Shown here: in pieces, positions 2,067 through 38,828 of the stretch | Layout: every line of letters begins with the position of its first letter | Position numbering within the stretch: position 1 is the first letter of the stretch | Assembly (NCBI RefSeq): GCF_035582795.1 | Contig: NC_134368.1 | Coordinates: 7,479,501-7,543,500, forward strand | Direction of reading: 5' to 3' | Origin: Mycteria americana | Taxonomy: Eukaryota > Chordata > Aves > Ciconiiformes > Ciconiidae | DNA length: 64,000 nucleotides | Notes under the pieces: model-generated | Seen by the model: the letters and a program-made list of their open reading frames with translations, nothing else | What the model was told of the DNA's origin: nothing | Database searches by the model: none | Position numbers and translations under genes: made by a program

Positions 2067-2143
2067 GTCAAATGGATGATGTACTGGATCATATTCGCGC
2101 TCTTCACGACAGCAGAGACATTCACGGATATCTTTCTTTGCTG
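2067..2143 (+). CDS. REEP1: REEP1 coding exon, start of the TB2/DP1/HVA22 domain core
   Basis: This 77-base exon lies between the acceptor tttaccag and the donor gtgagc. It reads [19 protein letters not shown] and then TDIFLC, and ends with two bases of the Trp codon completed at 4056. It encodes one of the hydrophobic hairpin segments. It starts in phase 0, so the preceding exon upstream of the window should end on a whole codon. Confidence 0.96.
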
Positions 2144-5100
2144 GTGAGCACCAGATGGGAGATGGTCTTTGTCATGAAATGGAAAGAAAATGGAAATGTT
2201 TATGAGGGGAAAAAAGGGGTAACAGAGGTGCACTGCCTCCTGAACATGGGGTTAGCAGCTTCAGGTGCATAGAGGTGTTTTGTCTGGAGGAGGCATGCTT
2301 CCTTTCTCGGTGCTGTCATAGGAAAAGCAAGAAAGAAGATGGAACTGCTCAGTGATATCTCATTAGTGAGAAATCATTACAGCAGTCTCAGTCCCTTGCC
2401 TGTCAGAGAGAGGTACAGCTGATTGCTGAGTTGGATGCTTGCAGAGATAATCACGTAAACAACAGTAGCTTTAACTACAGGCATAGTTCTAGACTTATCT
2501 AGCTGTGTCCTACAGTAAATACACAGACTGTAGGGATCAGGCAGAAACAGCCCTGCAGCACAGGACTTTGTAGGTTGCTGCCTGGATTGTTGTTCCTGGG
2601 ATGTTTTGCCAGGCCCGTTCCTGGTTAAGCTGGGTTTACAGTTTGATGGAGGATAGTGACAGCCCATACTGATGGGGGCTCTCTGGTGCCAGTGGAAGGA
2701 TTCCTGGTGACCTCTGTCAGGATGAGAGCACATAAATGCTCAATTTTCAGATTCAGTTCCTTAAATTTGGATGCTCAAGTTTGGAAATGTTTGTTGCTTG
2801 GTTGCCCTTTTTAGTAAGGCCTTTCTTGTGGAAACCAGTGAGATCAGTAGACTTCTGGATGAAAATTCAACTGTAGTGCATGGCCCTCACCTAAAGCCTG
2901 TTCCTGTGTAGCACTGCACGCCTCTAGTGAGTCCTCCAGACAAAGGGAATCGGGGGTACTTGGCAAGATGTCAGATCTGTTGAAAAGGAGATAAAAGACA
3001 TTATTGTGTCTCTATCTAATTTGCATGCAGATCTACCTCCACTGTGTTCATCTGGAGCTTTGTTTTTTTGGAGGATGTATTATGTGGGTCTCTCGGGAGG
3101 AATGACAGAGGGCTTGTCCAGCCTGTGAAATCAAGTATGCTGTAGAGATCCTCAGTGAGGTGGAAGACCAACCTGGCAAATCCATGCTCAGAGTAAAGCA
3201 TCAGAGAGGCCCTTTGGGTCAGACCTGGATGCTGTATGACCCAGCTGGCTCGGTGACAGCTAGCACAGCTAGCACAGCGGTGCTAGCTAGCACAGCAGGA
3301 GTCTGTCTGGGTCCAGCTGGGCTGGTGCACAGCTATCACAGGGTCTCTGTGCTGCTCTCGCTTGCCCCTGCCTACAAAGGGTAGCGTTGGTTCATCACAC
3401 TGCTGACAGCAACGTGCCTGCCCGCATGAGGATGCCTCTAGCTGGCCAGCCTTGAGCTCTAGACTTTGTCCTCCAGAAAAGAGTCTGGATAATCTAATCT
3501 CAAGAAGTTCCTGACTTGTTACAGCTAAAGCATGTCCTGTTGTTAGTTAGTGTCCTGCATATTTTGCAGTGCTACCTGAAAGCCACAGTATGGATCTGCA
3601 CCTTTATGTTGCATGTTGCTTGGACAAGGAAGGTTCTTGTATTTCAATTTGAGTCAGATAAATGTTGTCTTAAAAGCAGAAAGGCAGAGAGATGAAAGGT
3701 GCCTAAATATATCAATGAAATAGTGATTTGCTGGTTTGCTCTTTGCTCCCTCCTAATGATTGGGGATGCTATGAAGACAGCATCTGTGCTTTTTGCATGT
3801 AGAAAGCTCCTCTTATCACACAGCAGAGTCTCTTCCAAGCCGTTAAATAATGGCCCTGATACCTGAGTAATGATTTACCCACATGCCTAGTTGAGATGTG
3901 TGTGAAGGTGAATGAATGTGTTTTGGTCTTTGGATTCTTTAGTAAGCAAAAGCTGCCCTAAGCTAGACTGGCCAGTCCCTTCCTGTACTGAGCATCTCTA
4001 ATTAAGGGTAGTGGTTAAATTGGGAGCAGACATTAACAGTTCTTTTTTCTTCTAGGTTTCCATTCTACTATGAACTCAAAATAGCTTTTGTAGCTTGGCT
4101 GCTGTCTCCATACACAAAAGGCTCCAGCCTCCTGTACAGGAAATTTGTTCACCCAACACTGTCTTCAAAAGAAAAGGTAACCACAGGTGCCCAGGTCCTC
4201 TCTGGGTGGAGCAGATCTACAATGTGTTTACTCTAGTCTTCGTATCACTCATTTTCATTGAAGGACTGGGAGTTGCCGATTCTCTTCCTCTGTCATTTGA
4301 TCATCTTTTTGGTTGGTGTTTGTGGTTGTTTTGTTCTTGAATACTGGCATCTGTTCAGCGCACTGACACATATTAACTAATCTTTGTGCACTTGAGAAGT
4401 TGGGAGGGAAGGGGATAAAAATACCTCCTGAGCTGCTTTGCACGTACTGGCTGAATATAGCTGGAGTGCTGTGTTGTGGCTGGATATAAAGATTAGAGAA
4501 ACAGGGTCTGGCAGCCAGGGCTCCTTAACTTTGTTCCCAGCTCTGCCTAAAACATTGTGCAGCAATGAGACAAATAGCCAAGCCTGTCTGAAAGGGGCAT
4601 AGCAAGCACTTGCCTAACTGGGAGATGTATAGCATGTTGAAGTAAGGCATGTAGCATGTTGAGGTCCTGGGTTGAGAAATGTCTTGCTCAAATTAATGAT
4701 GCTAATTTTGGGGGGGACGGGATGGGATGATGAGGGGACACACACATTACATCTTGGATCATTTGCCTGCCTAGGAGATTCCTGTGGCTGTGAATGGGAC
4801 ATTGTCAGGCAGATCCACTTGGCTCATGTGGATACATGGGCCAAGAATAGCTATCAGTCACACACCAACATGCAAACTACAAAGAAGTGAATACCTGTTT
4901 CCCACATTGGCAACTATGGAAATGAAAGATCTGTTTAGCCACAGGCAGTGCATGAACAGTTGTATCTCAGTCCTGTCCAAGAAGGACAGTGGGGATCAGT
5001 CTTCTGTCTCTCTGCTTCCTGGGAACTTCTGCTTATGCTTTTCACAAATAGTGCTTGTGCATTTTGGATTGCCACCTCTTATCTACTAGGTATAGGGACA

Positions 5101-8100
5101 GACTTGCTAAACAGCCAGCAGCTTCTTGTAGCCTCCAGTCCCTACTAACCCAGCACATCCAGTAGCTGAGTACTAGAAATCATTGTCATCCATTATCATC
5201 CAGACCCCTGTGTCTTGAGGGAGGGAGGGTTAGGGCAGGAACTTTCATAACCATTTCACTGTATATTGAGCAGCATCAAAGTCCAGAAGCTCTGGGCCTA
5301 CCAATTCCATGGGCATGTTGAAGCCACACACTGCAGTGATGTGCAGAGATATCTCAGATACTTCTGAGACCACCAGTCTTGGACCCAGGGCAGTACAGCT
5401 GCAGCTGCCCAGTGTGATAATATGATTCTTTTTAACTATGGGGCAATCCAATTTGTCTTTAGAGTCCATAGATTGCAAATGGCTCCTGACACACCCTGGT
5501 CCATTCTGCCCAGGTGAACATGTCTGTCTTGCTTCCAGGACCTATTGGTGGTGGTTGCACTGTGCAAGTGTATCCCAGCTTTGGGTCCCAATCTTCCATT
5601 CACAGAATAAAGAGTTCCCAAAGCCTGCAAAGGGGGTTACAGCTCCCTGCAAACCTCTCCTATTTGCAAATGTTGGCTGTGAACTTCTCTTCAGCCAAGG
5701 TGGAGGAAATGGAGGATATCTGCCTCCATAAAAGATGACCTGGCCCTTCCAAGAGTTTGAGGCTGGGAGCACTCTGAACTTGTCCTTCTTGTGCTTTTTT
5801 TTTGTTTTGTTGTCTGCTGTGACAGGAGATCGATGACTGCCTCGTCCAGGCAAAAGACCGGAGCTACGATGCCCTTGTGCACTTTGGGAAGCGGGGGCTG
5901 AACGTCGCAGCCACGGCAGCCGTCATGGCAGCTTCAAAGGTAAAGGTGTGGGTCAGGATGGTGACTCATTAGCTTCTCATCTGCATCCATCACCACCAGC
6001 AGCCACAGTGTGGAGGGGGAGAGACGGTGAGGGTAGGGATTTGCTCACTGATTTTGATCATGCCTCCCAATCTCCCATTCACCAGCCACACAGCTGCCTC
6101 TTGGGATGATGACGGTATGCGTGGTGCCTTGTGAACCTATAGGAGGTTGAAAATGCAGGATTAAGACTAGGGTCTGCCTCAGGCCTCTGTTGAATTTTAT
6201 ATTTTCCATAGCATTCAGTACCCAGGTGACAATGTTAGCAATGCTGTTCATCACAGCCTGTGCTCTTCATTTTCACTGTCAAAATAAGAGCATGCTTCCC
6301 ATGAAGCATGCTGACATTAGGTGGACACAGTTAACACCCTGACAGGGAAATGTTTTTTTTGGTCAGCACCTTCTGCAGTGAAGGGAAAGGCCATCTGCGG
6401 CCCAGTTTGTCAATTTTTGTGCTGAATTTTTGAGAAGTCTGCAGGATGTAGTGACCTGTAATTTGGGTACCGACAGAAAGCAGATGTGATCTGAAGTTCG
6501 TGAAGGCTAAAAGTTCGTCTGCAAGGCTTGCACATAACATTCCTTGTGTATAATTCTCTGGAGAAATGTTTATGTAGGAGTGAATGGGAAGTGGCATTAG
6601 TTGCTTTTGGAGAACGAGTAGATGTTGGATGAGTGGTCTTGTCTGAGGAGGTGTATCCTGTACTCTGTTCCTGGCTTAGAGCCAGAACCAGGAAATAGCT
6701 GTTGTCTCGGTTCTTTACTTGCATAAAAGCCACAAGGACTTGATAACTGCATTTTGTGGTCCTGCTCTCTGGCCATGGATTATCATGGCTTAGGGTAGAT
6801 GTGCACAGTGACTATACCCTTGTGTTTTGGGGGCAAGACTTGTATAAAAGATATGGCTTTCATGCAGTCAGATACAATGCCCTCTTGCAAAAGGATAGTA
6901 GAAACATATGGGCAAGGTGGGTACTGGTGTGTGTGAATGGCAGTTGAAGGAAATTCTTTTCCTCTGTCAGGTGCTTTTCGTACGACCTTAGGCACATCAT
7001 TTTAGTATATCTTGGCCTTACCTTCTGTAAAAATGCATAATACATCCTAGGGAGGCCAAATACCGTAAAGTCTATAAAGCATGTTGAATGCAAGGTATTA
7101 TAGAAGTGGGGAGCCCCTGGGATATGGCATGCACATGTAGAATTGCAGAGATATGCAAAAGCTATATCCTGTTGCAAAGAAAAGCCAAAAATTGCTTCCC
7201 TTTTCCCTGCCAAGCATTGTGCAGACTGTGGCTGTCAGGCCTGGCTCAGTTCTTCTCCTGAACTGTTGCTCTTCAGTGGGGAGGCTCTGCTAACCCAGGG
7301 ACTGCTGGCTAATCCAAACTTGAACTGCAGCCTGGGATAAACACGGAGCTAAGGCAAAGCTGTGTGTTAATATGCCCAATGAAACAACATTTGTGTGATG
7401 CCTCCATGACACTTAACACTTTTGCTGCTGCTATGTAAGCCTGCAGAAGTTGCACCATGGACATAAATAGGTTCTGGGAATGCCTGTTTTGCAGCACTGC
7501 CTTTGCTCTGAGCCCCTTCCTACAAGGTGCTGCAGACTCTCTGTGCTAGAGCTGTTTTTAGGACAGAGTGAGAAACTGTGTGTGAATCCCGAAGAAACTT
7601 GACTCCTGTTTGGGTAGCTCCTGAATATGAGAAGCTCAACAGCAGCCCAGACCCACAGTGCCAACCTGTTCATCTCAGGACTGCAACAGTGTCTTTTTCT
7701 GGTGTTTTTCTTAAGAATCTCACTGCCTTGTAATGTGGCTCCAGTGGCAGTGGGAAGCTGGGTAGAAGGGAGAAGAGTCTCCAGGGTACAAGGAAGCCAT
7801 TGTTTTGCATGAGTTAATGAAGCTCCCCATTCAGTGCTTGAAGAAAGCAACTCTGTGACTTGTGTGGTATTGCTGTATGGCACATCTGCCAGCCTAACTT
7901 GAGAGAAAACAGTTAAGATATTGCAACCTGTAAATGGACCAGAAGAGCCTTTCCTGACAGTACTTTGGGGAGGTGGAAAATGATCTGTTGATAAGATTGA
8001 GAGGTTGTTATTGGATTGATTAATCCATTGACTCATTTTTATAACAAAGCAAGGACTGTTCATGTCTTTGCTTCAACCTTGACATTTAAATTACTCTGAA

Positions 8101-17100: not shown

Positions 17101-20100
17101 CACTTGAGCTGGTGGTGCAGGAGGAATACAGCACTCATGTTACAGCAGCTCATCAGTTGCTAACCCTCTGGCTTTGCTGGTCTGGTCATTCTGCAACAGC
17201 AAAATATTATTCAGTGATCTGATTGCTCTCAGCTTGCTCTCGCTAGGGATCTGTCTGTTGTAGTCAAACTGCAGGGTAGGGTGTCTTCTGTTAGCTTTAA
17301 ACCCGTTATTGAGAATACGGTGGCAGTGCAGGGATTCAGTGCAAGCTACAAAACCAATCCAGAACTGCAGTGCACTGAGCTCTAGGCGGATGAGATAACT
17401 CCCAGCTAACCAGCCATGCAAGGAAATTTGAGTGTACCAGCCCAGTGGCAGTTGCATTTGTAGACTGCAGAGTAGAGGTACCTTAGACTGGCCTAAGAAG
17501 AAAAACTTGAGATGCCTGTTGGAGTGAGAACATGTCCCAGGAGTGGCTCAGCCACTGGCAGGAAAGTAGCCAAAATTCAGGCATCAGCTCTTGTGGCGTG
17601 TTGGAGGATGAGATGGCAGAGGTGAGATTTTAACAAAACATCGGCTCTATGGACTCCACTGCCAAGCATATAAAATAAGCAAAATAAAATGTCTCAGTAC
17701 ACCAGCAAAAAAGCCCCATCCATTTAAAATACATTAAAAAGTAGAACAGGCTAATGCGAAAGAGCAAAGTAAGTCTGCAGGAAGAACATGGTGGGTGTGT
17801 GGAAACTTCTCTCTGATAGCCTGCAGAAAACCTAAATGCAAAATGCTGCCAAACACGGTATACATAGAGAGATCTTAAGAAACCAAAGATTCAGTATAAT
17901 AAAGAGAAAAATCCTAGTGCAGCTTTCTGGCTAGCTCCACCAGGTGACTCTACCCTACAAAGGACAGTTCAATTTTATTTTTCTTAGATGATGCATATTT
18001 CTACTGATGGTGCTTTGGGACAGCATTGAAGAAATTATCATCATGTGCTGTTTGCTTCTTGCCAATGCAGAAAAGTGCTGTAGTCCTGGATGTATAGCCT
18101 GCCTGTGGTTAAGTTGATACGCTATGGAGTTGAGAAGGAAGTTTGAACCCTTAAAGGATTTTTCTTGTATGAAAAGCTTCAAGCTGAAAAGTTAGGAGAC
18201 TACTGATCTAGCAGTTTTCTTGAATGCAGAAAGTGCAAGCTGTCACAGTGACTGTAGTTATAAGCACCTGATGCCTTGTCTACTTACAGTCCCTAAAAGT
18301 AAGGTGCTGATTAATTTGTATGGGGTACAGGCACTGGTATTTCCAATACTCTACATGTGAAATTTCTGAAGTGATGTTGGTAAATCAGTATGTGTAGGTA
18401 AATTGATGCATTGCCTTCCCAATGTATCAATGCCAGTGCACTAGGGGACAGGCAGTGTTGCCTAACTGCTTTAGCAATGAATGTGTCCAGTCTTGCCTTT
18501 GATCGTAGATGGTCAGGATGAGTCCCTTCTCTGTGCCAGGCTGGCACCAGAGTGTGCTCTCCGCTGGTCCCTCACCTTCAGCCTGGTTTTGTGAGCAGGA
18601 TACTCAAATCTGCAGCCCAGAAGGGAGCAGTGATGTATTCTGGTCCAGCCCCAACCTAGAGCCTTCGGCAGTGTTCAGGCTATGCTTCCACTTATGTACT
18701 GCTTTGTCAAAACCAAGTCTAAATGAAGGTGGTGTGTGAATTGCTATGATGTGCCTTCTCTGTTTTGTTAAACAGGGCAATATTTACTGTTGTTTGCCAT
18801 CTTTCTGATTTCACCTCAGTCAAAGTATCTATTGAATTTTTACACTAGCAGAAATACTTTTAGAATCAGGCTCTATGTATTTATTTCAGTATTTTTTTCA
18901 AGACTATATGCTATCTTTCAGACTCCCCCCCCCCCCCCCCCCAAAATGTTAAAACCTAAATGTACTTTTTATCAGTTATGCTATTTATGTTCTGAATGCC
19001 ACTTAATGTAGCCAACAGAGAAGGATAGATAGGTTCTGTATTGATTGTATTTTCTGGCATTCTTACTTTATGGCAGTGGTGTAGTATGAGGATTACAGAA
19101 TTCAGAAGGAGGTATACTTGTAGTCAACTTTTTGATGGGATGTAGTTTTAATGAAAGGTATCTTTTAACCAAGCCATCCTTTACAAAGAACATCTACATT
19201 CCTTTCACCAAGGAATATGTTTGTTGCCTGATTGAGAGCTAGTCTAAAAAGAAAGAGAAATGTTGTGTTAGTTTATTTCTTCCTTAAGGTGCATGAAAAA
19301 CAGCACTGGAATATTTCTTTGCATTTAACAATAACTTTTTATTACTTTAAAATTTCAGATTTTCTGTGTGTGCTCTGGAAATTCTGTGTATGACTGAGAA
19401 TGGCTGGGTGAATATTATCATAGATTATTAACTTTAAAAGGGAGTTATTTTGATGCAGACTATTTAATTGTGTTTCTGAAGCCAAGCACCTATTTGACTC
19501 AGATCCTAGTGAAGAAAAGTACCTACTAGGAAGATACAACATCCTGCTCCTTTAGATGTGGCCAAGGCTGCTCTGAGCTCAAATGACTGCATTGAAGAAT
19601 CAGAGATGCTTGCTATCAAAAGTTTGAATGACTTTGTGCATAGAACCACTCCAAAAGGAAGAGCAAAGAGAGGGAAATGATGCTTTTAACTACTCATTTT
19701 TGTCCTCTCTAGGTTACTGGACCAGGCAATTTTTTCCCTTCCTATTGTTCTGATGGATTTCAATGAGCTAGGGAGGAGAAAGGCTCAAAATGCACTGTGG
19801 AATCTAACTTTTATGTGTGTTATTTGCTTGCTTGTTTAACTAGGGACAGGGGGCCCTGTCTGAGAGACTAAGGAGCTTTAGCATGCAGGATCTCTCGACG
19901 ATTCGTGGAGACAGCAGCAGCACTGTTCCTCCTTCGGTCACTGTACGAACAAGTAGCAAACAGAGCCAGCCAAAAACATCCAGAAGTGCATCAGAAGGCA
20001 CTGGCAGCTCAGGTAAGTGCCAGTGTTATTTTCAGTGTTGTGTTGTCTGGAATATCATGCAGTTGAATGAAGTCATGCAGTTGGCAGGAATATATAGAAA

Positions 20101-26100: not shown

Positions 26101-29100
26101 AGAAAGATGTGTGAGAACAACCCATATGTATATGTTGTATGAGGTCTCAAGAGAATAAACCTTCATAAAATTGATCAGCTACCTTCTGTGTAAAATCAGA
26201 GGCTAAACCCACAGCAGATCTCTTGAGGTTGGTTGAGACTCATCTCTTTTATACGAAGGCCATAGTTTCACAGCGGCATCCAGCCAATGTGAGGCAGCAC
26301 TCCCGTTGAAAGGGTATGACTCAGCTGCTTGCTTCTGCCCCATACTGTCCTTTCCCTTGGACATGTTTAAATCTTATTTACGTATGCTGACCCCAGCCAG
26401 GGAGCTGTTTCAAGTTAAATGCTGTTCCTTGCTTCTAGGTTGCTCTTGACCTGGGTCAGATCCTGAAGCCAGTAGAGAGCAGCAGCACAGACATCAGCAA
26501 TAGGACAAGGAAGGTGGAGGCCAGAGCGTGAGGGGCAATGGGACATCTGCTTTCAGCAGCAGTACTGGTTTATGCTGGTTTAAAATGACTGTGAAACTAT
26601 GGAAGAACTTGCAGTATCTACAGTGCAGTATCTAAACTGAGCAAATAATAATAAATGATAATCTTACTAACCAAAGAAATCATACAGAGCTCAAACCTTT
26701 TTTTTCTCCAAAACCTTTTTATACCTGGAGTCATTGAAGCCACTGTGAGGATTAAATTGGAAGGCTCAAACTGGAAATTATTTCTAGGCTGTTTCCTGGA
26801 ACAAAAGCTATTCCCAAGATGAAGCTGTAAAGGTCACACTTTTATGAACTGCTGTGAATCACCTGCATTTGCACTGAAGGGTCCAATGCAATTCCCTTGG
26901 TTGCTTTCATTCTTACAGCAATTCCAGCAAAACATAATTCCTGCAGGACTCCTCAGCACATTCTTGATTTAGGAAGATCAGGGATCTGTGGATAGTTTTC
27001 CTTCAGAAGCTGCATGAATGGCTGCACCAGTGCTTGTAGAAGTCTAAATCTACTGAAAAAAATCCAGGCATGTAGCTATACAAGTCCCAGTATTGCACCC
27101 TGTGTTTATTATCATACAGCCTTTTGCACTGTGTTACCTATTGCTTATCCACGCTCCCAGGCCCCTCTAGTCAGGAGTTATTTCTGTTTAGTGATCTGAG
27201 AACAGAGCCAGGGAGCTGTATGTAATCCCAGCCTTAACACCCATTAGGCACATAGCCTGGTGTCAGGCACGTTCCCGAGTCTGTGCTCCATGCTGGTGAA
27301 TAGAGACGATCGTCCCTTAATGCACATGGGGGCTGTGAAGTCCACCCCAGGATGATACCAAGTGTTTTCTGAGAGGTAACTTAGCCTGATGAGTTCCTAA
27401 CGCTCAGCTCCTCTTTCAGTGTGCACGTGTTGCTCAGTATGCCGACTCCTCAGAGGTGAGTGCTGGATTTCCTGAGCCCCGATACCCACGCGTCCCTTTT
27501 GGGCATGACCACGTTCCCCAGCCTGGCTTGCTCCTGCCGCTCGTACTCACTGGGTTTCCTAACACCAGGGGAACAAACTTGGGGAAGGCCAGGCTGTGAG
27601 TGAGTTTGTGAGCTCTGTGTGTGCTGATGGCAAGTATTGTGGTGCTTCTCACCTTACTGACCTGTGTGACTGGAGGCTGGGGAGTGTTTCTCTGGAGAAA
27701 AACCTCACTCCTTTCCGTTCTAGAGGATGTACCACTGTTCTTGCTGCACTAGTGTAACTCCTGCCCCGTATTCCCCAGCGCTAGCATAAAACTGCAGGGA
27801 AACCAGCAAGAGCAAACCTTCCTCAGTCCCAGCCCTGCTTTGCTCTGTTCCCTAAGGATCGGCACGTATTTCTCTGTTTGTGGAGAGGACACTTGCGTTT
27901 GGGATGAGCAGGGTAAATAACAAAGCCCAGTAGCAGACCCTGGTACGATGAAATAGGGTTGAACAGACTGACCCAGCTTCAGTCTGTGCTAGAGCCATTT
28001 TTGAAAAATGTCCCAGTGTCCCCAGTGTTGCTTGTGGTTACAAACTCAGGAGTGTAGTGAACGGTTTAGCTACCGGTGGTCTTTACAATGCTGCGCCAGT
28101 TAGCTCGGTTGCTAAGAGCTGAGCCGTATCACTTCTGCATTTTGTCCCAGTGGCAGATGAAAGGAGGGGGAGGCCTCTGATCTGGGCATGCATGCCAGAG
28201 GATGGGGCTGCCAAGCAGCTTGACTAGGGAGAAAGAAGAAATCCAGACTGTCAGTGTCTCATGTTGGTGGAAGCAAAAGACCTTTGTAACTCCTTCACTT
28301 CTCATCTCATGTGCTTTTTGTTTATTTTGCACACTGTAATCAACCTGGGGATGGCAGCAGAGGGATTGAAGGATCACAGTGCTGCCACCGTGCTGCAGCC
28401 ATCGCTGCTGGCTCCTGTTACTTCCAGAGTACTGGGATGTGCGTTCCCACTGCCTTGCACCTGATGTGCCATGCAGCCCTGTGCAGCATTAATGTTTGGA
28501 GGCTGGTGATCCCAGCCTGACACTGTCTCCTTGCACACTGCTTAGGTGGCAAACCGACTCTCATATTTGGTTTGTCACCCTCCCTGTTGTCCTTTTCCAG
28601 TTCTTTTCACTAGCACATTTGGGGTGAGTGCCACTGTGCAGGAGAATGAAGCCTGTTTAAGGTGGTATCTGTTTAAGCAGTCATGAAACACTTGTATTCA
28701 TAGTGCATTTTATCAGCACCCTTCTAATGTTAGCCTAAACTGATTGTATGGATTTGACTTCAAAGTGTTATTTATAAAAAGAATCACTGAATCCTTAAGT
28801 GCTTAATAGTCATGAGTTAATCTTTGAAGAGTCATTTAATGACACTATAGCAGTAATCAGTCCAATATGTTTACAAATTGGGCCCAAAGTCATGTTGATC
28901 TGGTTTAAATTGCATGCCCTGTCTTTCAGATTGGCTTGTTTTACTTTTTTTTTTCCCCTGACATAACCTAGTCCCTTGGACCATGTCAATAGGGATATGC
29001 TGAGGCTCTATCTCATAGAGGGTTCATTCTCTTTCCACAGGCTGCCCTTTCTCTGTCGCCAAGGCAATAGATGCATTAATGCACTCTCCGACAACGGCCT

Positions 29101-32100
29101 GCCGTTTAAAATGCTCCTTTGTAAGTGCAGCTTTGGTAGCTTAGAGAGCTGACTACGTAATGTGAACACGCTTTCTCAATGCCACAAAAAGCAGGGGGAA
29201 GAAAGAAGCTAAGTTTGTTTAGCTAGGACTAAGTTGTCCTAAACTATTGGCCCTCATCTTTCCTTGGTGCAAACTTTTGTGTAGCCAGTTTCAGAGTACA
29301 ATTGTTAACAGTACTCATCTCCAAAGAGTGTATAATCTAAATGGACAGATAGTCAAGCCTTACCTCAAGCAGGAATGCTGAAGGCTGGTTTAGAGCCATG
29401 ATGCAGCCTTTTTGGCAGGAGCAGTTGCCTTAATGTTTTTGCAGATGAAACTCAATTGTTTCTCTTGCTGGCTGACTCATAGAAACCCCCACAGCTCTTA
29501 GGAGAGCACAGGCTGGTGGGAGCAAAAGTCTGTCCATCCCACTCCCTAGATGATATCCTGAGAGAAGCATCGGACAAGATAAAAATAGTTTGGGCCAAAA
29601 CATGGTGGTTTCATGACTATCTGGCTTGCAGGTGCCATGGGAGTGTGCATTTATGCGGAGACTGAAGACCAGGCTGAGTGCAGCGTGAGCTCACCCTGTA
29701 CAGGAGCAAATCTGTCACTGTCAGCGGTGATGGGCTCCTCTGCCGCTGAAGATGTTTGCTTGACAGAAGAGCTCCTTCCTGCCCAGTTGCCTCACTCCAG
29801 CCAGCCTCACGGTCTGCACATGACAAAGGGTTGACACAATTCAGGACATTCATCTTCCTTTGCTCTGGGCAGCTTCACTAAATACAAGTGTGTTCCAGTA
29901 GATATACTCCAGCATGTCTTCTTGACAGCTTCTGTGTCAGCTCTTCTTGCTCTTGTTCAGTGGCAGGCCTTTGCTGGCAGAACTCCTTCCAGGTCTTTAT
30001 ACAAGTTTCTGATTTATCGCTTCTATGTTCACGGCCTGTGCAAAGTCAGGCTGCAGCATTAAAGAACAACGGTACAATTACGTAAGGGCTCTTTTTCCCC
30101 TTCAGGAAGGACAGAGTGAAAATCTCCAGGGATATCTGTTTGTCTTTTGGCAGTGCCTGGTAAATGCTTAAACGCTGGTCAATATTAAACAAGCTTGCTT
30201 GGAACTGGCATTTAAGAAGTAACAAATACTATGTTCAGTGGTATTCTCTCAACTAACGTCTCTTAGGTGCTGTTGCACAGCCCTGTGGCATGGTTGAGAG
30301 GGAGGAACAATTTTAATCCTTGCAGAGAATAAATATATCTAGCAGATATTGAAGAATCAGCTGCATATCAGGAGAACTGTCGCGGCTGCATGTATTTGAG
30401 GGGGCATTTAATACTAAAATGCTAATCAGGAGCCTCAGGCAATGTAAGAAATGTGCAAGGATATTAGTGATGAATGCGATTGTTTTTTGAGTGTGCACCA
30501 CAGGGTTGTGCTCCATAGCAGTGACTGATACAGTAATGTACACCTTAAAAACTACAGCTCAGCAGTGACTGACGGTCAGCCTAGCCAACATGTTCAGTCA
30601 GCCATCAACAAGGTGTTGCAGCATAAAGCCAGCCCCTGGAGTTTTTCCAGTAAAACAATGTTGGATCTGTTCCTACATGTGATTGTCATCCTGAAGACAA
30701 GGTGACAGATCACACACAATCAGCAGTACAGCTCAGCGAGGACCTCAATGGGACATTCACTTAATTGTGTTTTAAACAAATCACCTTATTGGTATATTAG
30801 ATGTATCCAATGCCTACTTTGTGGTACGCTGCAAATTGCACATGAGATTATTACAGTGGAAAGTACTCTTAAAAAACTAATTGACTTTGCATCAAGGGGG
30901 CTGTTCATATATCTCTGAACTAATTCAATTAAATGGTGTAGGTGGTTTCATTTTTGTTCTTAGCCAGTTTTGCTTCCAGCTCTTGTGCTGGGATTTACAG
31001 ATTTTTTTTTTTAACCTTTCTCTCACTGAGCTTAAAGAACAAGCAAGAACTTTCCGTTGCTCTAGTCATTTTGTTCCCTAAAACTTCCCATTACTAAATG
31101 TTGAATCAAATTTTTACAGGGATGGTTTTCATCACTTTGCAACACTACCTCTGAATGGCAATTTGGGAGTTTCTCTGGGTATTTAAAAATACTTTCATAG
31201 TTATTTTGGTTATTTCAGGGGAGGAAAAATTTTCATACAAAATCAGTAGGTTCTTTAAGTCCATTTGCATTTTAGCAACAGAAATTTAAAACATTCATTG
31301 TCATTTAATAAACTCCAGTTGAACCACACATATTATGAAAGTGAAGATGAAGATTTCTGTGCTCTGAAACAATGTTCCTTCCCCCTCTACACCCAAATGT
31401 TTTCCCCTAACAGTTTATTCTTTCCTTTTCTCTATGTAAATATTATGGGACTCTGATGTAAGTGTTACACATTGCATGAGTTTTCTTCTGAGGTGTTTGG
31501 AATAGACTAGCACTTAACAACTTAATCATTTGTGGGATGTGTTTTCATTAACGGATGACTTTGTTGATGTGATTAGACTTGTTTGCTTTGGTTGTACTTG
31601 ACTTCAGCTTTGGAAGGGATGTCTGCCTCTGTTTTGTGGCTCCTGGGCAGTGTGTGCTGGTGGAGTTGGCTGCTCCTACCTTCTTGGTTTGGCAATGAAA
31701 ACTATTGGGGAAGTACATGACTTGTGTCAGTGTCTTTTGGAAATGATGGCAAATTTGTCTTTGTTGCAGGGAAAAGAAGCTGATCGCCATCATATAATAA
31801 ATATCTGCTCTCTTGCTCTTACTAAGTGGTGTGCAAACCTCCTTATATGAATTATCCCCTGGAAAGGCTTAGCTCTGGAGTGACTTTGTCTTCCATTACA
31901 ATAATACAATACCTTGCTCCTGGTTTGTGTAGTCTGTGACTGTGGTTTTCCCCATTGCTCCCGAAGAATTACAGTGACAGGAGAAAGAAGTATTGCCTGG
32001 GAAAATAAGGGGGGTCCAGCTTCTCTCAAAGGTATTGGGGTGCCTGATTCCCACTGTAACTGTATTTAAATGTCCAAATTTTTCAGAGGATCTAGATCAA

Positions 32101-35100
32101 AGTCCTTTGCTCCTCTGTAATTAGAGTGGGTCAGGCCCTGACTCCTGTTGTACTCATGAAAATCCATAGGAGTTACTCTGGATTTAAACAGCAGCATAGA
32201 TCAGAGCCTGAATCAAAGCACTTGCTGAAAAAACAGCCTGCTACTGAATCCCATTTGTTGCTGTAGAATGAGTTTTGCAAGTGAGATTTTTTAGCCTATG
32301 TAGAATCACACAGATTAAAGATGATGACGATCTGGCCCTACATTCCCTTGTCTGTGCTGGGTTGTTCCCTGTGGTGCATTTAATAGCTTAGATCCCAACC
32401 CTGTCTACTTTAACTTGAAATATGCCCAGCTTCAGGGCTTCCCACAAAATGTGTTGGTTGTATCGGTTCCCTGGGAAGGAATTAGGATAGGATGATAGGA
32501 ACTGGAATTAAGGGGTCCCTTTCCTTATGCTGTTTACAGTCAGATTCTGTCTTGCCTTAGTGAAGAGAGGAGTATAATCTCATCTGGATACTGAAAAGAC
32601 ATTTACAAGAGGCAGCAGCAGCTTTAGCCCTGGCACACTAGCCGATTTCCCATTTCTGCAGCAATTCTGCCCCTCCACGCAAAGGTGTGGAGCCATAAAT
32701 GTACGAGGTGGAGACACCCGAAACACAGCCTGCTCTGAGATGGGGAGTGAGAGTCTCCCAAAGACGAGAGAGCCAGGGGAGATGTCTGGCACGTGGTCCA
32801 TGCTTTTACGAAGCCACCTCCTGACTGTGACATGGTCCCTGGGGCTGTCAGCTGCTTCCCTGGAGCAGCACACGCTGCTGGCTCTGCGACTTGGGGGACA
32901 TCTGATAGTGGCCTGCAGCCCCACAGTCTCAGATCCTAAAGGCGGCTCTTAGGAACACACAGGAGGTCACCCAAGGCCAAGTGCTGTCCTCAAGAAGCCT
33001 GTGCCAGCCCTGACAACATGTTTTGCTCCTCAGTTTTCACCTTCTCACCTCACCTTCACCTCAAACCTTGGTGTCCCCGCACCCATCCATTCACTTTAAG
33101 CCTCCATCTCCTTTCTCACTAATTCCTCACATGTGTGCTTATTATTCTGGTTAATCCCCTGCTTCACATTTTCTCCTGCAGAGGACTCACTCTCTTGGTG
33201 TAGGAAGATTAGTTTTTTATCCTGTCATCACTCTATTCACAAAAAAAACAACTTCAGAGTTGGCACTCACACAGCAGCAGCCCTTCGGAGATGAGTTGCC
33301 TCCAGTCCCATAACAGTGTAATGCTTCCACAAACGTGGGACAAAGTCTGGCACCCCAGATCAATACAAAGTTGGGGTTGCCCACAATACAGATGTCCTTC
33401 CAAAGGCAGGATGGGCAGGGAATCCTCCCTTCTTGTTCCAGGTCTTAGAAAAAGGTCCTTCTGTATTCAAGGTATGCTCTCGTCAGTGGTCAGAAATGTC
33501 TTGGAAAGGCCTGGGATAGACCCACTTCTTCCCTTTTCCAGTTCAGTGAGGCTGAAGCAAAACTGGTTCTCATTTGGCTGGTTTTCAGTGCCTCATTCAC
33601 AATGAGATGGAGCAGGGGAGAAGAGGGCCTCAGCCCAACTTCCAGTGGACTTCACAGACCTCTCTGCTGCGGGGGTCAAAGCAGTATGTGCCTGCTTGGA
33701 GGCTGAGCTCTCCTCTTGATCTTCGTGGAAGCAGCTCCAGGACATGGATATGACGCTGAGGCTGATGGGGAGAACGGAAGAGCCTGCAGGAGGCTGGGCC
33801 TCTGCTGTGCCTGTCATGGAGACGGGCGCTGCAGGTGGCAGAGCTGCCTGGATATCTTTTTCACACAGCACCCAATTCGAGAGAGAGAATAATATCGGAG
33901 AAAGCAACGTATGCTAGAAAAGCATGGGATTCCCGGGAGTGTTATCAGGGCTGACAGTTCCTTCTGTCTCCTTTTGCAGTGGAGCGGCTGGCTGTAGGAG
34001 AAAAGGAGCAGGGCACATTTGCCTAATCCTGTATGCTCTCAGCTTCAGCAGCTAGCATCTCCACAGTCTGGTCACCGAACACTCTAATTCTGGTTCTCAA
34101 ACATCCCTCTGTCCTGCCCCCTTTGAAGTCCTCTTTTTCCTGGGCAAAGCCGTTGTTTCCTCGCAGCAGCACGTGGCTGGGGGTGTGTTGTTGGGCCAGC
34201 CTGCAGTCCACATCTGAGGGACCTCTGGGGAAGAGGGCGGCTGGGAGCAGCCATATGGATTGGTGCTGGGGGCAGTACTTAGCCTCCAGGCTGCAGATTT
34301 GGGCATGTTTCGTTCAGGTTTTGCTCAAGCTCTGAACAAACAGCATTAAAACCAAACTTGACTCCATTTTTCATTGGCTTAGAGAGGCACAAAGACCAAC
34401 TCCCACATCCAAGATGACCTAGGCTAGACTCCTCCTGAATATCTCACTTTCCAAGTGGAAGGATAATATAGTAATTAAAATAAAATGTTCCTGACATTTG
34501 CCATGTGGACTAGAGAACATTTAATTCTCCCCACAGTGTATTCTTAACACCACAGTCATATACAGAAAAAAACCAATTCAGCATTGTCCTGGGCCTCTCT
34601 GCAACGTGACTATCAGCATTTTCAGTACAGCTGGGTAAAAGTCAACTTCTGGCTCTTCCTGGAAACCTGTGATGGCGTCTTACAGCCTGTCCATGCAAAT
34701 GGTGATAAAGGGGTAGGAACACAGGGTTAGTGGCCAGAGGATGGTGTGAACCGCTCTCTCAAGCAGCAGCCGCATCCTGTGGGTTGAACGCAGGGGCTGA
34801 GAGCGTTTAGCTGCTGACTTGAATTTGGCACTGGAGAGAGCCCCAGTGACCTGCTCGTGACTTGTGGTGTTGCTGTAGCCAAATCACTTCCCTTTTGTCT
34901 CTCCATTATCTGCTGAAAGAGCTGTTGGAGAATTCAGTTCTTCTGTGCTTTAAGGATCTAAATGGATTAATAAGTATTAGACGTTTAAAAATCCTTTTTG
35001 GTTTTAGTATTTGGGTTTTAGTCTTTGGTCCAGCAGAGTCTTACAGTCAGGCTGAGACAAGAAGCACGGAGCATTATTTCTATGTATGTTTATGCAACAG

Positions 35101-38100
35101 TCTAAGTATAGGGCCAGTAATTGTGGTTAATGCCATCTAAACAGCAAACACTTCCACTCCTGACATATTTCAGAATGAAAAAAGCCTAACTATCAGTCAA
35201 ACACAGAAAGCTCCAGCCCTGCTGATAAGAAACTGTCTGTGGAGATGCAGAAAGCTTGGTCACTCTGGGTGTCCTTTGCTGTACCTCTTGCTTTGGACTG
35301 GCCATTAAAAATACCATCCTGCTTCACTGTCTGGATTTAAGGCAGCAAATGGATTGTGTTGTGCAACATGACCAGTCCCACAAAGATCTTGCCATAAGTT
35401 ACAAGGTTAAGAACCACCAAGCAGGTGTTAGTGGTCTGTAGTCATGGGGCCATAATCTGCCTTCAAATCCATCAGTGGAGTTAATGCTCCATAAGATTTA
35501 CTCCAGAGTGACAGAAGAGAGACTTTCCCCCACTGTGGTCTTGCAGCAACACACCCACTTGCTAAGGGTCCATTCAATGCCTGTTGAAGCTTTTGGTTAA
35601 CATCAGTGGATCTCAGACTGGGTGCTTGGCTTGAGCTCTCTCAGCTTCAAGTCAGTTCGTGCTGCCATGCTTCATATTTCTGCATCCCAGGCAGCTCTCT
35701 CCATACTGTCCAGAGGGCTTCAACACTCATTTGGTGTCTTCTAGAGGACACTCCTTCTGGAAGCAGTAGATGCAGGAACAATGGATGGAATCAGTGATTC
35801 AAGAAATCAGCTATTTTATTTATCCCTAAGCCAGACAAAAAAATCTCTTTCTAGAGTCAACCTCCAGAACATCAGAGGCTGTGAATTTAGTCTCAATTCT
35901 ATGTACAGTAATCCAAATAGAGCTTATAATGGCTTCATAAACGAGCCTTTTGATTTCTAACCCCACAGCTGCTATTACTAGAGTGTGATGTGTGAACCTT
36001 CTGTCTATTAATCCCTGGAAGATGCATGGCTTTGCAGTGATGTGGCATTTGGCAGTGTGAATCAAACCATCTCTGATTTCGTCATCCTTTGTCTTCATGT
36101 TTAGACTGTAAATGGCCGTGTTAAATAGGTGTGGACAATAAGTATGAAAAGCCACCTGAGGCAAACTGTGAAACAAAAGGCTCTGTGTTCTCAGATGATG
36201 AAGAGAACGATTCATTGGATTGTGCATCCATGAACAAAAGGCCCAAAAAGAAGGATCAACCCCTTGAGGTACTTCCATATTGTCAAGGCTCCTCCTTCTG
36301 TGACATTCCTTGAATCTTCAACTGAATGAATATCTCTCTTTGGTCTAAAAACACTGAGTCCAAATAATACATTTCTGGTCTTTCAGGGCTGGGTCTTGCT
36401 ATGGGTTTGCTCACTTTTCTGCATGTGTGGATTTCCTGAAAGAAGTCTGAATTAGTGCCTGTGGAGATAATAGTTATACGGGGCTTCAGAGTTGGATCTG
36501 AATCGCAAAACTTTTATCTAGCTCTAAACCATGTGCTAATGTGGAGGTATTTGAGCGAGAGGATTTGGATATCAACTGCTAGTTGATTTTTCATGTCTGT
36601 AGAGGAAAATATATTCTCACCCCCAAGGCAGGATAGTTATGGTGAGAACAGCCAGCACCCACAGCCAGAGCCCTCACAGTTCAGAGCCCAGTCCCTCTAA
36701 CTTGAGTTCGCACCTAGCCAAACCCCACTGACACCAGCGGCAGTTCTTCCTTCATGACTTCGGTAGGTTTTTGAATCAGGCACTGTATTAACAAGTATGC
36801 TTTAAGTTGCTTCATGGAAACAAAAGAACTAAAGGAGATGCAGATCTCGCACTGTGGTTTGCTAAAAGCAATTTTAGCAACATTTTGTTGTGGAAGAAAT
36901 AAAACCTCCATGGGAGATGCTGTAGGCAAAGACTCCTTCCAGATCTGGGCAGGGGGGATGGAGCCACAGCCAGCAGCTCTCAGATCCAAGCTGGGAGATC
37001 TCGACCCTCCCCTTGGCTCAGTATGAGGCAGCTGGAGCAGTGTGGTTTGGTAAGCAGTTGTGTGATCTTGTAGTGGGTTGTCCTAGCTCTGGGGGATCTC
37101 ACCAAAAGCTGGGGGGCTCTGTTCTTACTGTGGAAAGGTGCAGCTGTGACACAGCCTCTGTTGCTACTCTCAGAGCTGTCAAGTGGCCTCCCAGAGGAGG
37201 CAGAGCTATTCATTCCTGATTTAAGAGTCTTTACTGTGCAGTTAATGGCTGCTTTAGTCTAAGAGCCATCTGGCTTCCCCAAGAGCATCCTTCTCCCAAG
37301 CTGCAGGAGATACTGCTGTGGTTGTCAGGCTGTGTCCCGGAGCTCCTGGTTTACAGGTAGTGACTCAGAGCCAGCAGCTATGGAGTCTGGCTGGTGTGGG
37401 ATCCCTGCCTGCCATACACAGCAGCTTTCTTCCTCAGCTTTTCTCCTCCAGCTGTGCCTTTCTGGATGCAGCCACCACATCCAGCTCTGTTGTGCTTTTG
37501 GGAGTTCACAGTGGGAACTTGGGGTAAAATTTCAGGCTTGGAAGATGGGATGGGGTGTTGGATTAGTCCCATCTCTGTGAAAAACTACCTTGGTTTATGG
37601 GCAAGCTGGAAGAGATAGAAATTTAGATGGAGTCTAAACAAAACCTTGCTGCACTGCAGTTCCTTATCCGTATGAATATTTATACCTTGCTGCATCACAG
37701 GAATGTGGAAACACAGCATGATCTTGCGTTGGAAAGTCCTGTAAAATAGAAATGACAAAGTCCTCACTTACGAATGGTAAGGCCCTGTTGTAGTCTTACA
37801 GGTAAATAGGTTGATGCTGTTAAAGAAAATAAAGCTTTGGATATTTATGTAAATGGAGTAGAAGAGCCTACCAGGCCTTGCAGTGTTCCATGATGCTATG
37901 ACAGGCCTCCACACTGAGAATTTGTGCTCCTCCACAACATCTGGTAACTGTTTCTTCTTGTGAAGCTTGCAAGACACAATGCTATGCCAAAGCTCTTCTG
38001 AGTATGTAGTGCAGATTAGGTTTGGGGTTTTTTTTTTGTTTGCTAGTCTAACTAATTTCTGTCTCAGTCTGGAGAACGGGGTTAATCACAGTAAACCAAT

Positions 38101-38767
38101 TTCATGGAGTTGGTCTGGCTCCTCCTGGGCATTCAGAGCTCCTTTTTAAAGCTCTCTGCATCAGCTGACTGCAAGGCAGAATTGCAATAGTTGGCTTCTA
38201 AAATAATTTCAATGGATTGTGTCTGGCCTGTCTCCCAAGCGAGGGGCTGATCTTTTAAAAGAGCTCTGCCTTGTGAGAATTACAGGCCCAGTGTGTTTCA
38301 CCTTGGGGACCCCTTCAGCTTTGTAATGCCCCAATGAGATGTACCCTCAGAGGGGCTGTGGCTGGGCTGAACAGTGCAGGGTGGGCTGGGAGATACCAGA
38401 GCTGGCTTTCTGCCACCAGTTTGCTCTCTTGATCCAAGAGCTGCTGTAAATGGCACCAATTTGTCCGCCTCCTTTGACTGTTATGTCATTAGCAACCTTT
38501 AGCTACACCTCAAACCAAGCACCAGAGTGGAAAGTGTTGGTGTAACCTGGGTGAAGGGGCTACAACAGGTTTCTTAAAGGAGTGAGTCTTCAGCTGGTCC
38601 TTCATTAATGATCTTCAAGGCCAAGATCTGCTTCTCCGTTAATTCATGCCTGGAATGGGATCATTGTCACAGAGGTGCCACAAAGATGGGTGAGTTTTAA
38701 GGAAAGAAAAAACATTTCCTATTACGCCACTGAAGTTTTCTCTTGCTTTTCTGCAGGCACCGCCTAG
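2067..38767 (+). CDS. REEP1: REEP1, receptor expression-enhancing protein 1 (3' part, canonical splice form)
   Basis: Joined exons 2067-2143, 4056-4176, 5826-5939, 19844-20012 and 38757-38767 give 163 residues and a stop. They match human REEP1 from the VKWMMYW motif (about residue 36) to the ...SSGTA end almost residue for residue. REEP1 is an ER membrane protein of the DP1/Yop1/TB2-HVA22 family. Its hydrophobic hairpins curve tubular ER, its C-terminal part binds microtubules, and in humans its loss causes spastic paraplegia SPG31. Visible are the hydrophobic run YWIIFALF, the [23 protein letters not shown] core, the amphipathic [13 protein letters not shown] stretch and the serine-rich RSFSMQDL tail. 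All junctions have AG acceptors and GT donors, and phases agree. The first exons (about 35 residues) lie before base 1. The predicted full length of about 198 residues compares with 201 in human. Identification is by remembered similarity. Confidence 0.96.
2144..4055 (+). other. REEP1: REEP1 intron
   Basis: A 1,912-base GT-AG intron. The only structure seen is a small gctagcacagc-type reiteration at 3258-3297 containing GCTAGC palindromes. Confidence 0.85.
4056..4176 (+). CDS. REEP1: REEP1 coding exon, second hairpin region
   Basis: This 121-base exon follows the pyrimidine-rich acceptor ttttttcttctag and ends at the donor gtaacc. It completes the split Trp codon and reads [20 protein letters not shown], then [10 protein letters not shown] and [10 protein letters not shown]. 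This is the most conserved block of the REEP family. Confidence 0.97.
4177..5825 (+). other. REEP1: REEP1 intron
   Basis: A 1,649-base GT-AG intron. No exon or repeat family recognised; overlapping short open frames lack any domain. Confidence 0.85.
5826..5939 (+). CDS. REEP1: REEP1 coding exon, end of membrane domain and amphipathic segment
   Basis: The exon has 114 bases (38 codons, phase 0 at both ends), acceptor gtgacag and donor gtaaag. It reads [20 protein letters not shown], then [18 protein letters not shown]. This helical region follows the hairpins and is thought to help wedge the ER membrane. Confidence 0.97.
6963..7050 (+). repeat. possible MIR-type SINE 3' fragment
   Basis: The stretch contains cgaccttaggcacatca, ttggccttacc and ttctgtaaaaatgcataata, in the order of the MIR/L2 tail (gaccttgggcaagt, cctcagtt, ctgtaaaatggg). 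It is strongly diverged, so this is tentative. Confidence 0.4.
18925..18942. repeat. 18-base C homopolymer
   Basis: Uninterrupted C run in the REEP1 large intron; a similar 17-base run lies at 59948-59964 in IMMT intron 7. Length may be a sequencing or assembly uncertainty. Confidence 0.8.
19844..20012 (+). CDS. REEP1: REEP1 coding exon, serine-rich cytosolic tail
   Basis: This 169-base exon lies between the acceptor tttaactag and the donor gtaagt. It opens [17 protein letters not shown] as in human REEP1, passes through a faster-evolving Ser/Thr-rich stretch ([18 protein letters not shown]) and ends [11 protein letters not shown] plus one base (g, phase 1). That leftover base can join 38757 to make GTA-stop, or 36129 to give a longer tail. 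Confidence 0.96.
20013..36128 (+). other. REEP1: REEP1 large intron (16.1 kb)
   Basis: Intron before the alternative exon, or the first part of an 18.7-kb intron in the canonical form. A MIR SINE lies at 22761-22900. No other gene, RNA gene or exon was recognised on either strand. Confidence 0.7.
22761..22900 (+). repeat. MIR SINE, ancient amniote element
   Basis: It begins gaagtggtgtagtggttagg, the tRNA-derived box A-like start of MIR, continues with gaattcacacccc (box B-like) and tatgacctggagcgtacc, and ends with cctcagtgtgtctgtaaaac. The parts appear in MIR order and near full length. Identification is by remembered consensus. Confidence 0.65.
36129..36268 (+). CDS. REEP1: REEP1 probable alternative exon (long C-terminal form)
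   Basis: This 140-base open stretch lies between an AG at 36127-36128 and a donor GAG|gtactt. Joined to the single leftover base of exon 19844-20012 it reads [18 protein letters not shown], then [14 protein letters not shown] and [15 protein letters not shown], with no stop. It leaves the final exon in phase 0, so the frame stays open through 38757-38828. The coding content is acidic and then lysine-rich, unlike random intron. The acceptor is weak: pyrimidines are concentrated upstream of a second AG at 36103-36104, and use of that AG would give a quick stop. I infer a real cassette exon from phase, open frame and resemblance of the resulting tail to REEP2; no transcript evidence is available here. 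Confidence 0.72.
36269..38756 (+). other. REEP1: REEP1 intron before the last exon
   Basis: 2,488 bases with a weak donor gtactt and a strong acceptor ttttctgcag. A cluster of overlapping short open frames at 37318-37618 has no recognisable product. Confidence 0.65.
38757..38767 (+). CDS. REEP1: REEP1 last coding bases, canonical GTA-stop end
   Basis: The acceptor is a good pyrimidine tract ending ttttctgcag. Joined to g20012 the reading is ggc acc gcc tag, giving G-T-A-stop, exactly the C-terminal end of the canonical REEP1 protein. The stop codon is 38765-38767. The same exon is read in another frame if exon 36129-36268 is included. Confidence 0.93.
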
Positions 38768-38828
38768 GACCCTTAGACCTCGCTTCAGGAAGAAAAGTAC
38801 CTCGTCCTCTGCCACTGAAACAATGTGA
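38757..38828 (+). CDS. REEP1: REEP1 final exon in the alternative (long-form) frame
   Basis: After exon 36129-36268 the final exon is read in phase 0 for 23 codons: [18 protein letters not shown] then ATETM, stop tga at 38826-38828. The basic R-R/K-K cluster and Ser/Thr end resemble the remembered C-terminus of REEP2 (SRSLKVRTRKKT near its end). This suggests the long frame is the ancestral one in REEP1/2. The full long protein would be about 265 residues, with 230 encoded here. Confidence depends on the alternative exon being real. Confidence 0.68.
   Translation, partial: APPRTLRPRFRKKSTSSSATETM

What the first reader, a model, noticed from the sequence alone, without database searches (positions are those of the whole stretch)
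36129..38828. REEP1 last exon coding in two frames, switched by an alternative 140-base exon
Skipping 36129-36268 joins g20012 to 38757 and gives the canonical G-T-A-stop. Including it keeps an open frame for 47 codons and then reads the last exon in another frame for 23 more, ending at 38826-38828. Both phase joins work exactly. The new tail has an acidic [10 protein letters not shown] patch, a basic KRPKKK patch and a final RFRKKSTSSS segment resembling the REEP2 end. The long tail may be the ancestral form, with canonical REEP1 a frameshifted short form. It would change microtubule or partner binding of an ER-shaping protein tied to spastic paraplegia.
Basis: partly seen in the sequence, partly recalled or inferred. 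Interest (0 to 1): 0.82.

Follow-up and report, generated by a model that had tools for sequence, protein, structure and literature searches.

The report
Long C-terminal splice form of REEP1
A vertebrate (probably bird) REEP1 gene keeps a penultimate exon that would swap the short protein ending for a longer charged tail; the longer ending looks like the old family pattern and a long human form appears to be annotated already, so the finding is real in the sequence but mostly known.

Summary
Phase-compatible open exons are cheap, though: 811 of 16,726 AG..GT pairs in this intron qualify. What makes the exon credible is family anatomy. REEP2, REEP3 and REEP4 in the same genome each have a phase 1-to-0 penultimate exon (140, 152, 170 nt; REEP1 140) and a phase-0 last exon with a basic ending. 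Jointly, the REEP1 long frame beats 3000 of 3000 shuffles against those endings; the other two frames are at chance. So the long tail is probably ancestral and GTA-stop a skip product. It is probably not new: a review numbers a human REEP1 '3'UTR' variant as coding, NM_001371279.1:c.808C>T. Taken as c.606+14C>T, this implies a 188-nt insert with the same frame shift; I did not see the human sequence. Open problem: the acceptor at 36129 is weak, and a stronger one 24 nt upstream (36105) would end the protein after DCKWPC. RNA is needed.

The parts
19844..20012 (+). REEP1 exon with the SFSMQDL motif and SRSASE; last exon shared by both forms, ends in phase 1
36105..36128 (+). Optional 5' extension if the strong upstream acceptor is used; reads DCKWPC-stop (TAA 36122-36124)
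36129..36268 (+). Alternative penultimate exon, 140 nt, phase 1 to 0, positional counterpart of the penultimate exons of REEP2-4
   Evidence: acceptor score weak
36195..36268 (+). Possible shorter in-frame version of the same exon (74 nt) from an internal acceptor; same downstream frame
38757..38767 (+). Short-form ending in the last exon: (G)GC ACC GCC TAG
38757..38828 (+). Long-form ending in the last exon: [27 protein letters not shown]
2067..2147 (+). Upstream REEP1 exon (VKWMMYW..TAET), match extent, boundaries not refined
4024..4185 (+). Upstream REEP1 exon ([13 protein letters not shown]), match extent, boundaries not refined
5823..5942 (+). Upstream REEP1 exon ([12 protein letters not shown]), match extent, boundaries not refined

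Best explanation
36129-36268 is the ancestral penultimate coding exon of REEP1, the counterpart of the phase 1-to-0 penultimate exons of REEP2, REEP3 and REEP4. When it is spliced in, the last exon is read in its original frame and the protein ends in a charged, probably disordered cytosolic tail (acidic [10 protein letters not shown], basic KRPKKK, then RPRFRKK). When it is skipped, the frame shifts and the protein ends two residues into the last exon (GTA-stop); that this is the 201-residue form commonly studied in human is recalled. Shown here: sequence, phases, paralogue gene structure and last-exon similarity. Inferred: that this animal makes the long mRNA, which acceptor it uses (36129 or 36195), and that the tail adds a regulatory or partner-binding surface.
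For: Exact joins and stops. REEP1-4 of this genome each have a phase-1 exon end, a penultimate exon of 2 mod 3 (140, 140, 152, 170 nt) and a phase-0 last exon with a basic ending. Long frame of the REEP1 last exon against the REEP2-4 endings: joint score 81, shuffle mean 49.9, reached in 0 of 3000 shuffles; other frames 897 and 2083 of 3000. Ungapped REEP1/REEP2 penultimate peptides, both 47 residues, 8 identical: 91 of 20,000 shuffles reach the score. Human variant listed as NM_001371279.1:c.808C>T although called 3'UTR; taken as c.606+14C>T the insert is 188 nt, 2 mod 3 like 140. Zebrafish reep1 described as 8 coding exons, 308 residues. The exon had one match, itself, in the genome search, so it is not a recognisable repeat.
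Against: No RNA data. Acceptor 36129 scores -4.9 on a generic recalled consensus, while 36105 scores 6.4 and leads to an early stop. Gapped comparison of the penultimate peptide with REEP2-4 is no better than shuffled (1296 of 3000), and the last exon against REEP3 alone is weak (468 of 2000). A profile of the REEP2-4 last exons ranks the REEP1 frame third of 3574 window ORFs at E 0.82, not significant. The implied human insert is 48 nt longer than this exon. The 2023 paper that uses NM_001371279.1 still counts 89 residues lost at Arg113, which fits a 201-residue protein. No orthologous DNA from other vertebrates was available.
Confidence: 0.75

Rival explanations
1. In this species the exon is included from the strong acceptor at 36105 (164 nt), so inclusion ends the protein at SS-DCKWPC-stop and probably sends the mRNA to nonsense-mediated decay; the long frame downstream is a recent relic.
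For: 36105 ranks 17 of 1398 acceptors in the intron against 584 for 36129. TAA 36122-36124 lies 144 nt before the next junction. The stop appears on translation.
Against: The frame stays open for 70 codons and the last exon keeps a REEP2/REEP4-like ending. In-frame acceptors exist at 36129 and 36195.
Confidence: 0.2
2. The exon is not used at all: a chance open stretch between splice-like dinucleotides.
For: 811 of 16,726 AG..GT pairs in the intron are phase-compatible and open; by splice score this one ranks 127th of the 811. The penultimate peptide shows no gapped similarity above shuffles.
Against: Same length and phase as the REEP2 exon, same place in all of REEP1-4, and a long-frame match of the last exon that the other frames lack. 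Human variant numbering implies the same frame shift.
Confidence: 0.05
3. A version of the best explanation, not an alternative to it: the long form starts at the internal acceptor 36195 (74 nt), so the tail begins [11 protein letters not shown].
For: Better acceptor score than 36129 (-2.85 against -4.9) and the same frame.
Against: Exact 140-nt length match of the 36129 exon with REEP2, and an ungapped alignment over all 47 residues better than nearly all shuffles.
Confidence: 0.2

Closest known systems
Human REEP1 NM_001371279.1 / ENST00000538924.7
   Same: By variant numbering, an insert before the last exon shifts it into another frame, so bases that are 3'UTR in the short form become coding (c.808 against c.606+14).
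Zebrafish reep1
   Same: Described as 8 coding exons and 308 residues, i.e. a long form (passage).
   Different: Longer; sequence not available here.
REEP2, REEP3 and REEP4 of the same genome
   Same: Phase 1-to-0 penultimate exon, phase-0 last exon, basic C-terminal segment.
   Different: REEP2-4 carry R-x-x-S-[LM]-[KR] in this exon, REEP1 has CASMNK. Skipping the exon in the three paralogues would not give GTA-stop.
Human REEP1 201-residue form (NM_022912, recalled)
   Same: The skip form here ends G-T-A-stop, as recalled for the human protein.
   Different: Lacks the long tail.
REEP6 retinal splice variant
   Same: Another REEP whose C-terminal part is changed by an optional exon (review passage).
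   Different: 27-residue amphipathic helix from exon 5 of REEP6; no frame switch of the last exon is mentioned in the passage.

Membership tests
REEP family (Pfam TB2_DP1_HVA22) | TB2/DP1/HVA22 core | tested here: met
   PF03134, 78.6 bits against a cutoff of 27.2
REEP1-4 subfamily | RLRSFSMQ 14-3-3 motif | tested here: met
   Exon 19844-20012 reads [11 protein letters not shown]; motif as described in PMC3411107 (passages)
REEP1-4 long C-terminal plan | Penultimate exon phase 1 to 0, last exon phase 0 | tested here: met
   exon ends placed by me from frame and splice signals
REEP1-4 long C-terminal plan | Basic ending in the last exon alike between paralogues | tested here: met
   0 of 3000 shuffles jointly against REEP2-4; 7, 468 and 16 of 2000 against REEP2, REEP3 and REEP4 singly
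REEP1-4 long C-terminal plan | Penultimate-exon peptide alike between paralogues | tested here: inconclusive
   Gapped 1296 of 3000 shuffles; ungapped with REEP2 91 of 20,000, 8 of 47 identical
Orthologue of the human REEP1 long isoform | Residue-level match to the human long tail | not testable with these tools
   No vertebrate collection held; only variant numbering compared
Expressed alternative exon | Junction reads | not testable with these tools
   No RNA data held

The most novel reading that the evidence does not exclude
Three human REEP1 variants reported in spastic paraplegia as 3'UTR or miRNA-site changes (c.606+14C>T, +43G>T, +50G>A) all map inside the 72-nt long-frame coding stretch of the last exon seen here. 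By this frame +14 falls on position 1 of an Arg codon in the basic RPRFRKK ending, +50 on position 1 of a Glu codon, and +43 on a third position where this genome carries T. The first and last may act as missense changes of the ancestral tail and the middle one may be silent, while functional work has used, at least in part, the tail-less form.
Probability: 0.25. Interest if true: 0.6.

Novelty: already known. Interest (0 to 1): 0.27.

Why it matters
If the long form is the ancestral REEP1, work on the 201-residue form (for example the tail deletion 156-201 in PMC11455953, passage) tests a protein that lacks the family's basic ending, and some human '3'UTR' variants in this disease gene would need to be read as coding. 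REEP3 and REEP4 have a second 14-3-3 site, Ser225 and Ser224 (PMC3411107 passages); by my count on a recalled human REEP3 sequence Ser225 lies in the homologous exon, so this exon is a likely place for regulation.

Tried and rejected
PDB sequence search with the 230-residue protein: 7 hits up to E 1, best E 0.15, none credible. Pfam with the 70-residue tail alone: one hit below cutoff (12 bits against 24.9). GTDB genome contigs for an orthologous tail: 198 pattern hits, none confirmed. Profile of the REEP2-4 last exons over the window ORFs: rank 3 of 3574, E 0.82, not significant. Repeat origin: one match, the exon itself, in the genome. Structure prediction was not run.

Papers, open-access library only, 10 searches. 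Searches (3 of 3 listed; 5 of 5; 7 of 7; 26 of 27; 30 of 1371): no listed title or abstract start concerns this exon; most of these papers I did not open. (REEP1 + cassette exon): 0 papers. (284 amino acids / c.808C / Arg270): 15 of 102 listed, none of the 15 mentions REEP1, so it tells nothing. Searches gave the papers cited for the human numbering. Passages seen in PMC12308531 name transcript REEP1-201 as differentially expressed in human neurons; which form that name denotes I did not see. Passages in PMC12786278 and PMC3788743 showed no mention of a REEP1 C-terminal splice form.

Two further, weaker matches of the REEP1 search (C32, C24), perhaps REEP5/REEP6, were not examined.

Full report
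What is there. The window is G000:C4:7479501-7543500 of a 1.35-Gb, 279-contig genome. No call names the species; a bird is my guess from genome size and sequence, and 'bird' rests on that. It holds REEP1 exons from about 2067 to the last exon. The exon at 19844-20012 ends in phase 1. Direct joining to 38757 gives GTA-stop at 38765-38767. Joining through 36129-36268 gives 47 codons (the first completed by base 20012) and 23 more, with TGA at 38826-38828.

Is it more than chance? Openness and phase alone are not enough. In intron 20013-38756, 811 of 16,726 AG..GT pairs of 50-250 nt are phase-compatible and open, and this pair ranks 127th of the 811 by a simple splice score. The stronger evidence is the family comparison. 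A search of the same genome gave 19 exon matches, among them genes on C8, C6 and C23 that I name REEP2, REEP3 and REEP4 from recalled human sequences; single matches on C32 and C24 were not examined. The C-terminal exons of REEP2 and REEP3 were found with recalled human queries (REEP2 penultimate E 2e-8, and last E 0.005; REEP3 penultimate 1e-17 and last 2e-8), those of REEP4 by reading the translation, so the choice did not use REEP1's tail. In all three the SFSM[QH]DL exon ends in phase 1, the penultimate exon is 140, 152 and 170 nt (each 2 mod 3) and the last exon begins in phase 0. REEP1's optional exon is 140 nt with the same phases.

The last-exon peptides are [23 protein letters not shown] (REEP1 long), LPVRSVKARPKKKAAGALASGESS (REEP2), IRYGSLKYRVKKRPAVYF (REEP3) and GSSRLLRSRIRKKAAPPEQDS (REEP4). 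The REEP1 long frame scores above all 3000 shuffles of itself jointly; singly 7, 468 and 16 of 2000 shuffles reach it for REEP2, REEP3 and REEP4. The other two frames are at chance, 897 and 2083 of 3000. Results that do not help: the gapped penultimate peptide is at chance (1296 of 3000), and a profile search of the window ranks this frame third of 3574 ORFs at E 0.82. The ungapped REEP1/REEP2 penultimate comparison (47 residues, 8 identical) is reached by 91 of 20,000 shuffles.

Known or new? A 2025 review lists the REEP1 '3'UTR' variant NM_001371279.1:c.808C>T, citing Beetz 2008 (passages). Another review lists the variants as c.606+14C>T, +43G>T and +50G>A (passages). Only one is C>T, so c.808 is most likely c.606+14. 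The difference, 188 nt, is 2 mod 3, which the long frame needs. Cautions: I did not see the human sequence or the stated length of its protein; the two reviews name different miRNAs for the C>T change; a 2008 paper writes an intron-6 variant as c.595-19 (passages), so the exact human junction is not settled here, though the 188 does not depend on it; and a 2023 paper that uses NM_001371279.1 counts 89 residues lost at Arg113, as in a 201-residue protein, while giving zebrafish reep1 as 8 coding exons and 308 residues (passages). In this window +14, +43 and +50 map to 38781 (C, codon 9 CGC), 38810 (T, codon 18 TCT) and 38817 (G, codon 21 GAA) of the long frame, all inside its 72 nt.

The weak point. 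The acceptor at 36129 is poor and 36105, 24 nt upstream, is strong (-4.9 against 6.4; ranks 584 and 17 of 1398). Use of 36105 ends the protein after DCKWPC, 144 nt before the next junction, which would predict decay of the mRNA. An internal acceptor at 36195 would keep the frame with a 74-nt exon. For comparison the penultimate acceptors of REEP2, REEP3 and REEP4 score 5.0, -0.4 and 5.8. The scores use generic recalled frequencies.

How it probably works. Inclusion or skipping of one exon chooses between a short ending and a charged tail of 70 residues. In REEP3 and REEP4 the second 14-3-3 site is Ser225 and Ser224; REEP1 instead uses Ser192 (PMC3411107 passages). By my count on recalled human sequences, Ser225 lies in the RRSQSM motif of the homologous exon and Ser192 lies upstream of the junction, present in both REEP1 forms. 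The REEP1 exon here has CASMNK in place of the R-x-x-S motif, so its tail is more likely a charged interaction surface than a 14-3-3 site; this is inference. Microtubule binding has been assigned to the REEP1 cytosolic C-terminus without an exact sequence (PMC9437294 passages). One 2024 study describes REEP1's disordered tail as residues 156-201, deletion of which mildly shifted REEP1 to the ER (passage), i.e. it used the short form.

Verdict. A correct and well-read observation whose ancestral interpretation is supported and whose human counterpart is, by numbering, already annotated. What remains interesting is the coding status of reported 3'UTR variants and the acceptor puzzle. On checking I lowered the best explanation from 0.82 to 0.75, because the human protein length was not seen and one paper counts the short form, and the stop-version rival from 0.22 to 0.20 so that the exclusive readings sum to one; the 36195 version is part of the best explanation.

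Noticed in passing
36105-36128: Strong acceptor 24 nt upstream of the named exon start leads into an in-frame TAA at 36122-36124; possible decay-triggering version of the exon.
   Followed up: partly
38781, 38810, 38817: Positions matching human c.606+14, +43 and +50; all are coding in the long frame, and at +43 this genome carries the human variant base T.
   Followed up: partly
G000:C6:35804032-35804183 (L023): REEP3 penultimate exon is followed by a GC donor (GAG|gcaagt).
   Followed up: no
G000:C8:569864-569881 (L020, minus strand): REEP2 penultimate exon has two acceptors 18 nt apart, which would add six in-frame residues.
   Followed up: no
penultimate exons of REEP2, REEP3 and REEP4 (L020, L023, L026): Shared R-x-x-S-[LM]-[KR] motif (RTQSLK, RTQSMK, RSHSLR), absent from the REEP1 exon, which has CASMNK.
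   Followed up: partly
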